IMG/VR virus record: IMGVR_UViG_3300020420_000012
Span: 17,636 to 81,635 of that record
DNA length: 64,000 nucleotides
Direction: 5' to 3' (one strand)
DNA from: a virus
Part shown: piece by piece, positions 24,452 to 52,007 of the stretch
Numbering within the stretch: the stretch's first letter is position 1
Layout: each line of letters opens with the position of its first letter
Notes under the pieces: generated by a model
Databases searched by the model: none
What the model was told of the DNA's origin: nothing
The model's input: only the letters and a program-made list of their open reading frames with translations
Made by a program: the position numbers and the translations under genes

Positions 24452-24590
24452 GAATTTTCTTCTTTCTTTTTAAACTTGCTGTTGACCATTCCGCTATCTC
24501 TTGTGTCGATCTGCCACAGCCAATACAAAAATTGTCTTGTAGAGTGCAAATCTTTATACAAGGTGAAACGACTTTAGAAATCGATTTCAC
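24417..24590 (-). CDS. DUF1289-family protein
   Basis: 57 residues. SPCIKICTLQDNFCIGCGRS followed by QEIAEWSTAS and ERLPDRL is the DUF1289 pattern: four Cys, a WS-type turn, and an R-rich end. The family is bacterial (common in proteobacteria) and of unknown function, so this gene looks host-derived. Start GTG at 24590 is preferred (AGGTGG six bases upstream); it overlaps the ribonucleotide reductase end by 17 bases. An ATG at 24632 would give 71 residues with a much longer overlap. Confidence 0.75.
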   Translation of the reverse strand: MKSISKVVSPCIKICTLQDNFCIGCGRSTQEIAEWSTASLKRKKKILERLPDRLRRM

Positions 24591-26787
24591 AGGCGCCACC
24601 TGCGCAGGCGGCTGCAGCGAGTGTATCAACATCGGTATACTTTCTTTCTTTAATATCTTCTTTCCAATCTACTGTCATAAGTGTCGATTGTATCTTATTC
24701 CACTTATGAAGTAGATACGCATCCTTTAAACAATGCTCAGCTAATGTTGTATCTGATTTTAAATAATTATCAGCAAACTTTCCAAACCTTCTTATCCAAT
24801 CTCTTTTAAGAGCATTTTCAGAAGTTTCTAGAGATATATCTTCACCAAACCCTTTTGCGGTTGAACACGCATCCCATAAGTTATTAAAACATTTTAAGGC
24901 GTCCACGACCATACCTGACGCAAATACTGCTGCATCACCATATTTCTTCACCATATCTTTTGAAGTAATGACTGCCGTGTTTGGAGCTTGATTATAATCT
25001 TTATCACCACTCATAGATAAAAATGAAATACCAGCAAAAGAATCTCTGTTTTCAAAAACATATCTTTCAACATCATCCCAATTATCAACTATTATAGTAT
25101 TTGAAACATTATGCCTAACGCCACTGTCTGCGCATAAATCTTCATTTGTGCCAGCTTCAACCCAATGTTTTTGAGCTTTCTTTACAAGTTCCAAATGTTT
25201 TATACCTAGTAAGTCATCTTTATACAAAGAACCTTTTTTTGGTAGTATAGGAAAAGAAACAACAACATCAGTGCCACCAGCAGACCATACTGAATCTTCT
25301 ACCATATAAGGATTGGTCTTCATAATAGCTTGAGTTATTTCTGATTCTTTATTCATTTGTACGTTTCTTATATACATGTCAGAATGCTCAGCATGAATGC
25401 CAGATGCAGTTTGTAATAATACAGAAGCATTACCACTTGGCTTTACACACGTAGTTCTTGCTGCAGGATTGATTTTAATAATCATGGCAACTTCTCTATT
25501 TACTTCTTTAACTATCTTTGCGCCTTTTTCTAATATTTTTTCGTTAAATAAAATATCAGGATTATTCATCCATCCAGTAATTGAAACTCCAAGTAACGCT
25601 TCTCTATCAAAGATAAGTTTTGATGTGTCAGTTAAAAACTTAAAGTCAGTGTACCCTGCTTGTAGGGTACCGAGGATAGACGCTGCTCGACATGCCTTAT
25701 AAAAGTCTTCCTCGGTATTGCATTTGCCTCCGTTGATTTCAGTCAGGTTACAGCCTTGCCAACCTGACTTTTTATTAATCTGAGGATACATACCAATCTC
25801 AACACATGGATTAGTTGTATGCTCTTTTGATTCAACAAAGACGAATCCGGGTTCGCCAAATTGTTTGACAGATTCCATAATCTTGCCAAACTCTTCAGGT
25901 GTAGTCTTGTCTCTAACAATAACTGCAGAGTTGTTTGACCTACCTCTTTGCGGATTTTCCATAAACCAATTCCCAGTTTTTGCGTTCAACATCTGTTCGT
26001 CATCTGGTGAGAATAAACATATTGTTGCAGATCTTCTTACACCACCGGATAATACAGCATCTGCTGCATGCATAGTGATATCATATGCATCAATAGGTTT
26101 GATTTCTATTGGTTCTTTGGAATCTAATACAATACCTTGTAATAAATGTTCTATCTTGTCTAAGGACCTACGTAAACCGTTCGGTCCTGGTGCTTTAAAT
26201 CCACCTGATATATAAGCACCCTTTGGTCTTATTTGTGATAAATCGAAATAAACTCTTCTTCCTTCGTATTCTGGATATTTACCTCCTCCAACAAAAAAAG
26301 AAGACATTAATATGTCTAATGCTGAAGCCCAACCTTCAATTGAATCTTCAACTATGTAACCTTTCGCTTGCTTTGTTCTATTTTGAATTTTTGGTAATTT
26401 TTTAATATGATGCTTTTGGACAGAGAAACCTGCACCAGCACCGCATAATAAAATATAAAACACTTCTCCAAAGAATGCTGGTCTGTCGACATAAGAAGAC
26501 GTACAGTTATACATTCTCATTTGATGTTTCATTAATTGCTCGCCGCCAAACTGTAGAGCGCGTTGCGCACCAAGAACTCTTTGTTCTTTATAAGCTGTAC
26601 GCGCCTCATCTAAGTAAGTAGCTAATTCATTATTATAGTTAATATAATTTTCGTCGTGCATGTTTATAACACGATCGACAGCCTCATCCCAAGTTTCATA
26701 TCTACCATCATCATCTTTAAATCTAGAATATCCTTCATAAAACTTAGTTTGAGACAAAAAATCTCTTGTGTCAACTTGTTGTTGCAT
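24574..26787 (-). CDS. nrdJ: Class II (B12-dependent) ribonucleotide reductase, monomeric type
   Basis: 737 residues, the size of the Lactobacillus leichmannii RTPR (739). It makes deoxyribonucleotides without oxygen or a small subunit, using adenosylcobalamin. Cys95 (YNCTSS), the active-site NPCVEI with its Cys and Glu, a later GGKC cysteine, and the C-terminal CAGGAC pair (Cys728/Cys733) that re-reduces the active site are all present. Most members have NPCGEI, so Val is a small change. Preceded by a family promoter at 26822-26850. The host must supply B12. Confidence 0.93.
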   Translation of the reverse strand: MQQQVDTRDFLSQTKFYEGYSRFKDDDGRYETWDEAVDRVINMHDENYINYNNELATYLDEARTAYKEQRVLGAQRALQFGGEQLMKHQMRMYNCTSSYVDRPAFFGEVFYILLCGAGAGFSVQKHHIKKLPKIQNRTKQAKGYIVEDSIEGWASALDILMSSFFVGGGKYPEYEGRRVYFDLSQIRPKGAYISGGFKAPGPNGLRRSLDKIEHLLQGIVLDSKEPIEIKPIDAYDITMHAADAVLSGGVRRSATICLFSPDDEQMLNAKTGNWFMENPQRGRSNNSAVIVRDKTTPEEFGKIMESVKQFGEPGFVFVESKEHTTNPCVEIGMYPQINKKSGWQGCNLTEINGGKCNTEEDFYKACRAASILGTLQAGYTDFKFLTDTSKLIFDREALLGVSITGWMNNPDILFNEKILEKGAKIVKEVNREVAMIIKINPAARTTCVKPSGNASVLLQTASGIHAEHSDMYIRNVQMNKESEITQAIMKTNPYMVEDSVWSAGGTDVVVSFPILPKKGSLYKDDLLGIKHLELVKKAQKHWVEAGTNEDLCADSGVRHNVSNTIIVDNWDDVERYVFENRDSFAGISFLSMSGDKDYNQAPNTAVITSKDMVKKYGDAAVFASGMVVDALKCFNNLWDACSTAKGFGEDISLETSENALKRDWIRRFGKFADNYLKSDTTLAEHCLKDAYLLHKWNKIQSTLMTVDWKEDIKERKYTDVDTLAAAACAGGACEIDF

Positions 26788-49388: not shown

Positions 49389-49873
49389 AGTTCTCCGATC
49401 CAACCAATGTACTGATAGTGTCCATCAGCTACTTTATATTTATTATCATTCGTGTTAAAATTAATTGCATTACACAGTCTTCTCATAATGTACGGTGTCT
49501 TATCTTCTCTTGAAAAAAATATATTACTACAACATAATTTATTCTTACAGTACTGAATTTGTTGTTTCAACATCTCTTCGGTAGAAGGTCTTACAAACCT
49601 ACGGTTTTCATATTGTGATATGTTTATTCCATCATCATAATAATATCTTGACAGCACTCTTAGCATGCCGTTAAAAATTGGTCTATCGTGTATAAAACTA
49701 ACAGAAACTGGTCTTTCATAATGTAAGCCTATCGTACATGCCACGTCATCTTTTATCTTAAAGTAATTTTTAGATATTTTATTTTTATTGTTGTTGACCG
49801 CTTTATGACATAGATACTTTATTTCAAATTCTAAGTCACTACTTTTTGCTGTTATAAACTTCCAACCATTCAC
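49358..49873 (-). CDS. Acetyltransferase-like (GNAT-like) protein
   Basis: 171 residues. ACTIGLHYERPVSVSFIHDR, NGMLRVLSRYYYDDGIN and KVADGHYQYIGWIGE follow the strand order of short GNAT-like phage proteins that I associate with T4-like phages. The acetyl-CoA loop is not clear, so activity is unsure. Overlaps both neighbours (31-35 bases). Confidence 0.5.
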   Translation of the reverse strand: MNGWKFITAKSSDLEFEIKYLCHKAVNNNKNKISKNYFKIKDDVACTIGLHYERPVSVSFIHDRPIFNGMLRVLSRYYYDDGINISQYENRRFVRPSTEEMLKQQIQYCKNKLCCSNIFFSREDKTPYIMRRLCNAINFNTNDNKYKVADGHYQYIGWIGELCLEKYHKPS

Positions 49874-50549
49874 AGTCTAATTTCTCCTGAGAGTCCATTA
49901 CAATCATGAGATGAGTCCTTGGTTCGCTGCCTTCATTTTTTACCCAATGATTCTTACCTGAGTTAATAAACCAAACATATCCATCTGCAGGAACGTGCAC
50001 ATCATTCATCGTAGCTTTTTCATTAGTGTCTATTGCAATATGATATCGAGTAGAAAACGTTGTGTCATAATCACGATGTGGCGCTATGCCGCCACCTGGT
50101 TCTGTTATCGCTATACAGACTCTTGTAACTCTTTTACCAAACCCTTTTACTACTTTTTCTAAGTAAGGAGGTAAATCTTTTTTAAGTTTACTGTAAGCCC
50201 GCTCGTCAAATCGCTTATCATTTTTCATGAATCCACGATCATATCTTTTACCAGAGTTTCTGTCTTTAGGTATCTCGTAATCAGGATTAAAATCAGTTAA
50301 AGCTATCTGTTTATACGGTATACGATTCCAGTCAAAATTGCTATCAACTTCTTTATTTGTTTTACCGTATGCGGCTGGCGATAAGTTATAACCATAAGCA
50401 TCACGTAAATTCTTGTACGGTCCTTCTTCCATGGAATCTTTCAAGTCTCGGGACACGTATTCGTGTATGTCTTTTCTCAACATACCGATATTGTATTTTA
50501 TATCAAGCTTAATGAGCTCTGGTAATTCGTTCCTTGATTTCCAGTTCAT
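49839..50549 (-). CDS. Aspartyl/asparaginyl beta-hydroxylase-like protein
   Basis: 236 residues. GGGIAPHRDYDTTFSTRYHI gives the H-x-D region with the Arg, and VWFINSGKNHWVKNEGS with PRTHLMIV gives the distal His and Arg. This is the Asp/Asn hydroxylase pattern in a small soluble form. It would hydroxylate a protein or small-molecule side chain. First large gene of the oxygenase group; ATGA overlap with a small membrane protein. Confidence 0.8.
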   Translation of the reverse strand: MNWKSRNELPELIKLDIKYNIGMLRKDIHEYVSRDLKDSMEEGPYKNLRDAYGYNLSPAAYGKTNKEVDSNFDWNRIPYKQIALTDFNPDYEIPKDRNSGKRYDRGFMKNDKRFDERAYSKLKKDLPPYLEKVVKGFGKRVTRVCIAITEPGGGIAPHRDYDTTFSTRYHIAIDTNEKATMNDVHVPADGYVWFINSGKNHWVKNEGSEPRTHLMIVMDSQEKLDCEWLEVYNSKK

Positions 50550-50927: not shown

Positions 50928-51161
50928 CTATTTCTTTTCGCTTACATAAGCATAGAGTTCGTTAGCTCTCTTAACGATCTCTTCTGGCTTGTACATGTCA
51001 GGTACGTACTTATCATACGCTTCCTTAATATCTTTACCAGTTTCTTGATTTTCATCAATCATACGATGCATGAAATCCATCTGTAATTGAAATTGTTGGT
51101 CAGCCATCTCTTTGGCCATTCTTAAAGTTTCGAGTCTGATCTCGTATGGATTTTTAGACAT
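50928..51161 (-). CDS. Conserved small helical T4-like protein
   Basis: 77 residues from ATG 51161, with AGGAGG seven bases upstream. NPYEIRLETLRMAKEMADQQ is a pattern known from small T4-like phage proteins. It is the first gene after the tmRNA and may share its transcript. Confidence 0.65.
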   Translation of the reverse strand: MSKNPYEIRLETLRMAKEMADQQFQLQMDFMHRMIDENQETGKDIKEAYDKYVPDMYKPEEIVKRANELYAYVSEKK

Positions 51162-51185
51162 ATTGTCCTCCTGTGTGTTGTGTGT

Positions 51186-51450
51186 TGTGGAGAGATTCTG
51201 TTTCCACGCTCTCTCCGAGCGCATAGGAATTACGCTGCTTGAGCGAACTCCTGAGGTGCAAAATTATCGTTTGCATTTAGAGTTTTGTTCGCATTAACCG
51301 AGCTTACATCCGGATAACTCCACATCGCTATTGAACCTGTCGATCCTATTTCAGCCCCATCAAAACTACTCGATAATAGTGTTTTTGGTGGAGCTGCCGG
51401 GTACCGCCCCCGGGTCCAGCGAACCATTCGCTTTGCTTCATCGTTATATA
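51186..51450 (-). ncRNA. ssrA: Permuted two-piece tmRNA (alphaproteobacterial type)
   Basis: Rescues stalled ribosomes. On the minus strand the acceptor piece comes first and ends CAGCTCCACCA (3' CCA at 51386-51388). The T-arm is CCGGG-GGCGGTA-CCCGG (51397-51413), an odd T-loop typical of alphaproteobacterial tmRNAs. After 27 bases the coding piece starts GGGGCTGAAATAGGATCGAC (51358). Its GGGGCTG pairs with CAGCTCC in a 7-bp acceptor stem with G3-U70, the alanine identity pair. The tag ANDNFAPQEFAQAA plus stop is at 51230-51274 (resume codon GCA 51272-51274). A CGCTC/GAGCG hairpin follows. Both outer ends are estimates. Confidence 0.92.
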
Positions 51451-51456
51451 GTATAT

Positions 51457-51485
51457 ATTATACCATAAAAATTAACATTTGTACA
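51457..51485 (-). promoter_or_regulatory. Phage promoter of the tmRNA, TGTACA-N17-TATAAT
   Basis: Minus strand: TGTACA (51480-51485), spacer ending ATGG, TATAAT (51457-51462). Transcription would begin near 51450, just before the acceptor piece. Confidence 0.85.
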
Positions 51486-51494
51486 CCTTTTTTT

Positions 51495-51502
51495 TATAAA
51501 TA
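51495..51502 (+). promoter_or_regulatory. T4-type late promoter TATAAATA (plus strand)
   Basis: Exact TATAAATA 22 bases before the ATG at 51525. It gives late expression of the plus-strand group 51525-53008, divergent from the tmRNA. Confidence 0.78.
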
Positions 51503-51524: not shown

Positions 51525-52007
51525 ATGATTGAAGTAGCAGCTGCATTAAGTGTAGCGACAAGCGCGTTTAATGCTATCAAAAAAGGTTTCGAGGTCGGTA
51601 GAGATATCGAGTCAATGTCAGGTGACTTAAGCAGATGGATGGGTGCAGCATCAGACATTAATAAAGCAGATGAATACGCAAAGAAACCACCACTATTTAA
51701 AAAGTTATTTGCATCAGGTTCAGTTGAAGAAGAAGCGATGGCGTCATTCATGGCTAAGAAAAAAGCCGAAGATATGCGTTATCAACTTAAACAACTCATA
51801 TCATTGACACGCGGTCCTGCAGCATGGGATGAGTTACTAAAGACCGAAGGTGAGATAAGAAAGAAACGACAGCGTATGATTTATGAACAAAAAGAACGCC
51901 AAAGAAAAATAATGGAATGGACAGCTATAACAATCGGCATTGCCGTATTTGGTGGATTTATTTTCTGGTTAGTAGGATTAGCAATGAAGGCACAAGGTAT
52001 ACTTTGA
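51525..52007 (+). CDS. Conserved phage protein with C-terminal membrane helix
   Basis: 160 residues. Helical N-terminal part (AAALSVATSAFNAIKKGFEV), charged middle (MAKKKAEDMRYQLKQLISLT), then one membrane helix (ITIGIAVFGGFIFWLVGLAM). I associate this pattern with T4-like marine phages; role unknown. Start has GAGGA upstream and a late promoter, so it is probably a late or lysis-stage protein. Confidence 0.6.
   Translation: MIEVAAALSVATSAFNAIKKGFEVGRDIESMSGDLSRWMGAASDINKADEYAKKPPLFKKLFASGSVEEEAMASFMAKKKAEDMRYQLKQLISLTRGPAAWDELLKTEGEIRKKRQRMIYEQKERQRKIMEWTAITIGIAVFGGFIFWLVGLAMKAQGIL

What the first reader, a model, noticed from the sequence alone, without database searches (positions are those of the whole stretch)
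51186..51485. Phage-encoded permuted two-piece tmRNA of the alphaproteobacterial kind, with its own promoter
The acceptor piece precedes the coding piece; CCA, G3-U70, an alphaproteobacterial-like T-loop and the tag ANDNFAPQEFAQAA are all visible. Ribosome rescue may be needed as host mRNA is degraded, or the tag may redirect proteins. It is a strong sign of the host class.
Basis: partly seen in the sequence, partly recalled or inferred. Interest (0 to 1): 0.88.

Follow-up and report, generated by a model that had tools for sequence, protein, structure and literature searches.

The report
Marine phage's own two-piece tmRNA
This marine T4-like virus carries a complete copy of the two-part RNA that frees stuck ribosomes; such genes are already known in marine phages, but its relatives show an unusual early-plus-late promoter and small genes tucked inside the RNA gene.

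Summary
On the minus strand at 51502-51186 lies a complete circularly permuted alpha-type tmRNA gene (Rfam RF01849, 133 bits, cut-off 50). It has an acceptor piece with CCA, a 27-nt intervening segment, then a coding piece with tag ANDNFAPQEFAQAA, G3-U70 and a 3' hairpin. The record is an 81.6-kb T4-like virus fragment. The gene is under selection: the tag changes almost only at third codon positions in its clade (pN/pS 0.07), and its promoter hexamers are conserved while the spacer drifts. It belongs to a 17-member virus-only clade, so recent host capture is unlikely. It is a new member of a known kind: two-piece tmRNAs were reported in marine phages (Melnitz, PMC9004378). Alpha-type tmRNA does not prove the host class: Melnitz has one and infects OM43. 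Two wider observations look new. Most viral relatives carry TATAAATA upstream, usually as TTGACA-N16-18-TATAAATA (overlapping sigma70 and T4-late promoter; 81 at tmRNAs, 6 elsewhere); this window's clade has only the sigma70 type. In 31 relatives the intervening segment holds a small ORF with a ribosome site (3.6 expected), including sister L127.

The parts
51480..51485 (-). -35 hexamer TGTACA (TTTACA in about half of the relatives)
   Evidence: 5 of 6 positions invariant in 19 relatives
51457..51462 (-). -10 hexamer TATAAT with extended TG; 17-nt spacer
   Evidence: 100% conserved in 19 relatives while spacer positions 1-12 are 66% conserved
51386..51450 (-). acceptor piece: from the inferred transcript start to CCA (51388-51386); T stem CCGGG/CCCGG 51413-51409/51401-51397, T loop GGCGGUA 51408-51402
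   Evidence: start of transcript is inferred from the -10 position
51359..51385 (-). intervening segment, 27 nt, removed on maturation (inferred); no ORF in this phage
51189..51358 (-). coding piece: GGGGCUG 5' strand of the acceptor stem (RNase P site expected before 51358), pseudoknot region, tag, 3' hairpin
51230..51274 (-). tag reading frame ANDNFAPQEFAQAA + UAA
   Evidence: purifying selection on the peptide
51189..51216 (-). 3' terminal hairpin GGAGAGA/UCUCUCC of the coding piece
   Evidence: -13.8 kcal/mol, z -2.0; matches the end of the RF01849 consensus
50928..51164 (-). 78-aa ORF directly downstream, with GGAGGA ribosome site; no terminator between, so probably co-transcribed
   Evidence: no terminator found; no family match
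51495..51502 (+). TATAAATA, T4-type late promoter of the divergent neighbour gene (30 nt before its ATG)
51525..52007 (+). divergent neighbour gene, 160 aa, phrog_32327, shared with roseophages; marks the syntenic position of the tmRNA in relatives

Best explanation
The virus carries a working two-piece tmRNA as one of its own genes. It is transcribed leftward from a host-sigma70-type promoter (inferred: early, since no late motif is present), together with the small gene that follows. tRNA-processing enzymes of the host remove the 27-nt intervening segment and leave an acceptor piece ending in CCA and a coding piece, held together by the acceptor stem (inferred from the permuted anatomy). Host alanyl-tRNA synthetase charges it through G3-U70. 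Host SmpB brings it into ribosomes stalled on broken messages, the peptide ANDNFAPQEFAQAA is added and the ribosome is freed; the tag then most likely sends the fragment to host proteases. The likely benefit is to keep ribosomes free and recycle amino acids while host and phage messages are being cut. Shown: complete anatomy, selection on tRNA domain, tag and promoter, conserved position in sister phages, no SmpB gene in the record. Inferred: processing, charging, timing and benefit.
For: RF01849 133 bits over the whole model. All 115 parsed viral relatives keep 7/7 acceptor pairs, 5/5 T-stem pairs and G3-U70, through many compensating changes (14 acceptor-stem pair combinations and several T-stem ones). 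Tag clade pN/pS 0.07, with 7 of 8 variable columns at third positions (p 0.003). Same tag, same place and same promoter in sister phages. Window tmRNA sits in a 17-row viral clade, support 100/98. No SmpB in this record or in 14 other virus records, so host SmpB would be needed.
Against: No transcript or protein data exist here. The record is a fragment, so SmpB could lie in the missing part. RNA structure could add to the constraint seen in the tag. The promoter match alone is not above chance in the region. The reason a phage would benefit is not shown.
Confidence: 0.8

Rival explanations
1. It is a recently captured host ssrA, or an attachment-site relic, with no role for the phage.
For: Phages often pick up ssrA pieces as integration sites, and host ssrA fragments exist in prophages (discussed in PMC9004378).
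Against: The gene is complete, sits in a T4-like (virulent type) virus at a place conserved among sister phages, forms a virus-only clade, has no close match in 385 alphaproteobacterial genomes (best 69-81% over under 200 nt), and its tag and promoter are under selection.
Confidence: 0.05
2. It acts mainly as a decoy or competitor: it sequesters host SmpB or replaces the host tag with one that is degraded differently, so as to spare or redirect phage proteins.
For: The tag ends in AQAA, where most viral and host tags have a hydrophobic residue before the last AA; closely related phages differ exactly at this residue (L412 ALAA versus kin AQAA; ANDNNAYVDYAIAA versus AQAA); a tRNA-like-only phage tmRNA (DS6A) inhibits host tmRNA (cited in PMC4131195 and PMC11915505).
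Against: AQAA is natural in Bradyrhizobium and some other alphaproteobacteria, and in the viral samples not chosen by tag Q is rare (2 of 168), so it is not a general phage trait. The full coding piece and stop codon are kept, which a decoy would not need.
Confidence: 0.15

Closest known systems
ssrA of Methylophilales phage Melnitz EXVC044M (MZ577097; PMC9004378)
   Same: Permuted two-piece alpha-type tmRNA in a marine T4-like phage (Kyanoviridae in the record); 113 bits to RF04321; its baseplate protein is a relative of the window's
   Different: Tag ANDNYVPVDYALAA; promoter TTGACA-17-TATAAATA; intervening segment of about 130 nt that holds an unannotated ORF; beside the late-transcription coactivator, not beside the phrog_32327 gene
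ssrA of Pelagibacter phages HTVC008M and Mosig
   Same: Permuted tmRNA in marine T4-like phages of an alphaproteobacterium
   Different: Lower scores (91-94 bits), tags ANFNEYALAA and GEDNFALAA
ssrA of roseophages such as DSS3_MAL1 (annotated) and vB_RpoS-V10
   Same: Alpha-type T arm and permuted order, nearest named DNA matches
   Different: Match only over about 15% of the stretch; DSS3_MAL1 has a long intervening segment and tag ANTNAAPMEMAIAA
Alphaproteobacterial host tmRNA (Rfam RF01849)
   Same: Same model, same fold, same G3-U70
   Different: Sampled hosts fall outside the viral group on the tree; none of 107 host copies has TATAAATA upstream, against 124 of 206 viral copies

Membership tests
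alpha_tmRNA (RF01849) / permuted tmRNA (RF04321) | Covariance score above the curated cut-off | tested here: met
   133 bits (cut-off 50) and 120 bits (cut-off 47), full length
alpha_tmRNA (RF01849) / permuted tmRNA (RF04321) | Acceptor piece encoded before the coding piece, with an intervening segment | tested here: met
alpha_tmRNA (RF01849) / permuted tmRNA (RF04321) | CCA, G3-U70 and A73 for alanine charging | tested here: met
   sequence; G3-U70 kept in all 115 parsed relatives
alpha_tmRNA (RF01849) / permuted tmRNA (RF04321) | Tag reading frame with stop codon | tested here: met
   peptide-level selection
alpha_tmRNA (RF01849) / permuted tmRNA (RF04321) | Matures into two RNA pieces | not testable with these tools
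   needs RNA from infected cells
Phage-encoded tmRNA (a viral gene rather than a host gene in a contaminated contig) | Lies among phage genes | tested here: met
   gp32, baseplate, tail tube cap and other T4-like proteins in the same record; same gene and place in several independent viral contigs
Complete trans-translation system encoded by the phage | SmpB gene present | tested here: not met
   none in the 81.6-kb record (a fragment) nor in 14 other virus records
T4-type late promoter on the tmRNA | TATAAATA at the -10 position | tested here: not met
   the window and its 18 closest kin have TATAAT instead; most other viral copies have it

The most novel reading that the evidence does not exclude
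Marine phage two-piece tmRNAs are a long-lived viral gene lineage with its own regulation and a second use. Most are driven by a dedicated overlapping promoter (host sigma70 -35 TTGACA plus TATAAATA, which serves both as -10 and as T4-late element), so they would be made throughout infection. Their intervening segment is a docking place for small protein genes that are translated from the tmRNA precursor. The window's phage is a derived branch that kept only the sigma70 promoter, and its sister L127 carries such a nested gene.
Probability: 0.55. Interest if true: 0.65.

Novelty: new member of a known kind. Interest (0 to 1): 0.45.

Why it matters
The gene itself adds a clade of conserved viral tmRNAs to a short list of known phage copies and shows that the tag is kept by selection. 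Its promoter bears on when the phage wants it: the published reading for Melnitz is early expression, while most relatives carry an overlapping late element. The nested small ORFs would be the first protein genes reported inside a tmRNA gene's intervening segment, as far as the papers searched here show. It also warns against inferring the host class from an alpha-type tmRNA.

Tried and rejected
(1) AQAA as a phage-specific loss of the protease signal: rejected as a general claim, because AQAA is common in Bradyrhizobium-type hosts, 4 of 385 sampled alphaproteobacterial genomes match the AQAA pattern against 16 for the hydrophobic pattern (both patterns miss most tags), and only 2 of 168 viral copies in samples not chosen by tag have Q. 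(2) 'Acceptor-only' viral loci as decoys: 56 loci with the T-arm motif lacked an ARAGORN call; most of them proved to have a coding piece with an unusual tag, or to end at the contig edge; about a dozen remain unparsed by my script. (3) TATAAATA counts in the window: not above chance in number (10 against 11); only the positions (6 of 10 lie 13-43 nt before an ATG of an ORF of 60 codons or more) speak for late promoters. (5) Host identity: the class sample is unnamed, so the donor group could not be named; among the host tags fetched, ANDNVASQDFALAA in G381 looks closest to this tag family.

Full report
What is there. The minus strand of the window at 51502-51186 matches Rfam RF01849 over its whole length with 133 bits (cut-off 50) and RF04321 with 120 bits; ARAGORN calls the same gene as permuted, with tag ANDNFAPQEFAQAA. 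Read from the sequence: acceptor strand CAGCUCC-A-CCA, a 27-nt intervening segment, then GGGGCUGAAAUAGGAUCGAC. All seven acceptor pairs form, with G3 opposite U70. The T arm has the alpha loop GGCGGUA. The tag frame ends in UAA, and the coding piece ends in a 7-bp hairpin.

Where it is. The record is an 81,635-base IMG/VR virus fragment. Its proteins include T4-like gp32, baseplate wedge and hub, and tail tube cap. gp6 is closest to phage C48C1, Melnitz, HTVC008M, Mosig and Caulobacter phage Cr30. The divergent neighbour gene (51525-52007, +) has relatives in roseophages and in 118 viral stretches. Several of the closest carry the tmRNA at the same place with the same tag.

Is it selected? In 115 parsed unique viral copies the acceptor stem (7/7), T stem (5/5) and G3-U70 are kept through many compensating changes. 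In the window's tag clade the ten distinct tag sequences give pS 0.33 and pN 0.022; seven of eight variable columns are third positions, p 0.003. RNA structure may add to this, but the pattern is that of a translated, conserved peptide.

Promoter. TGTACA-17-TATAAT with an extended TG is at 51485-51457. A scan of the region alone would not support it (5 sites against 7.2 expected). In 19 relatives, however, the -10 is invariant and five of six -35 positions are invariant, while the first 12 spacer positions are 66% conserved. No terminator was found between the tmRNA and the next gene, so it probably heads an operon.

Origin. On a tree of 149 tmRNAs the window sits in a clade of 17 viral copies (100/98). 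The host copies sampled (the 30 best matches among 385 alphaproteobacterial genomes, plus Bradyrhizobium-type copies) group elsewhere, with two viral-contig rows among them. The host sample is limited and unnamed, so the donor is not known, but recent capture is unlikely. The alpha type does not prove an alphaproteobacterial host: Melnitz infects OM43 and has one too (PMC9004378).

Parts it lacks. SmpB was not found in the record or in 14 other virus records, while ten of the 14 control genomes rang, so the RNA would depend on host SmpB.

Prior knowledge. PMC9004378 reported 53 two-piece tmRNAs among the 133 unique tmRNA structures found in 18,146 phage genomes, 50 of them from marine or aquatic samples, and suggested early expression. 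PMC11915505 lists 79 unique phage sequences. The window's gene is therefore a new member of a known kind.

Two wider observations, made on relatives. First, TATAAATA, the T4-type late promoter, lies at a nearly fixed distance (29-38 nt) before the acceptor piece in 77 of 120 unique viral copies against 2.7 expected, and in 124 of 206 in the larger set against 0 of 107 host copies. In 99 of the 124 a TTGACA-like -35 (at least 5 of 6) stands 16-18 nt before it, against 2.5 in shuffles; the exact form TTGACA-N16-18-TATAAATA occurs 81 times at tmRNAs but only 6 times elsewhere in the same 1.7 Mb. This looks like one promoter readable by host sigma70 early and by the T4-type late apparatus later. 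The window's clade has only the sigma70 form. These are sequence matches, not mapped starts.

Second, of 100 viral intervening segments of 60 nt or more, 31 hold an ORF of at least 20 codons with a ribosome site near the start, against 3.6 (maximum 8) after shuffling the segment. Homologous ORFs recur in different tmRNAs and show pN below pS in all 11 pairs tested (for example L116/L410: 0.17 against 0.61; L127/L412: 0.13 against 0.63). One family (L116, L410, L095, L117) is 57% identical to the protein encoded just upstream of ssrA in Melnitz. Melnitz itself has an unannotated ORF in its segment. L127, a syntenic sister of the window's phage with the same tag, has one of 45 codons (its upstream site is weak); the window has none. 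PMC11915505 mentions a tRNA gene and a repeat in two intervening segments, but no protein gene in the passages read, and a further literature search showed no such report in its titles and abstracts. No Pfam family matched the four nested proteins tried.

Verdict. A complete, selected, phage-owned two-piece tmRNA; ordinary in kind, in a clade with its own promoter form and tag. The promoter and nested-gene observations on its relatives are the more surprising part and are directly testable.

Noticed in passing
L027, L029, L042, L046, L058, L072, L092, L116 and over 100 other viral tmRNA loci, about 30 nt before the acceptor piece: TATAAATA late element upstream of the tmRNA (124 of 206 copies), usually as an overlapping sigma70 and T4-late promoter TTGACA-N16-18-TATAAATA that is almost confined to the tmRNA gene (81 at tmRNAs, 6 elsewhere).
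   Followed up: yes
L127, L412, L116, L410, L095, L117, L470, L405, L455, L453, L055, L064, L035, L098, L036, L515, L109, L118, L397 (Melnitz): between the CCA and the coding piece: Small ORFs with ribosome sites nested in the intervening segment of the permuted tmRNA gene, in recurring families, with pN below pS in the pairs tested.
   Followed up: partly
tags of L412 versus L213/L233; L150/L155 versus L204/L207/L228: Close relatives differ at the residue before the last AA of the tag (Leu or Ile versus Gln), a position recognised by ClpX in E. coli (general knowledge, not tested); the tree needs 7 changes in all.
   Followed up: partly
L027, L029, L038, L026, L095, L117; L046, L058, L042: Very long tags (24-31 residues) in some viral tmRNAs and very short ones (9 residues, e.g. 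ANANYSLAA, ANENFALAA) in others.
   Followed up: no
window 49839-50549 (-): Aspartyl/asparaginyl beta-hydroxylase (PF05118, E 1e-10) downstream of the tmRNA.
   Followed up: no
window 24574-26787 (-): Ribonucleotide reductase 61% identical to that of Rhizobium phage RHph_I1_18 and 57% to Pseudaeromonas phage KLEP7, a different kinship from the structural genes.
   Followed up: no
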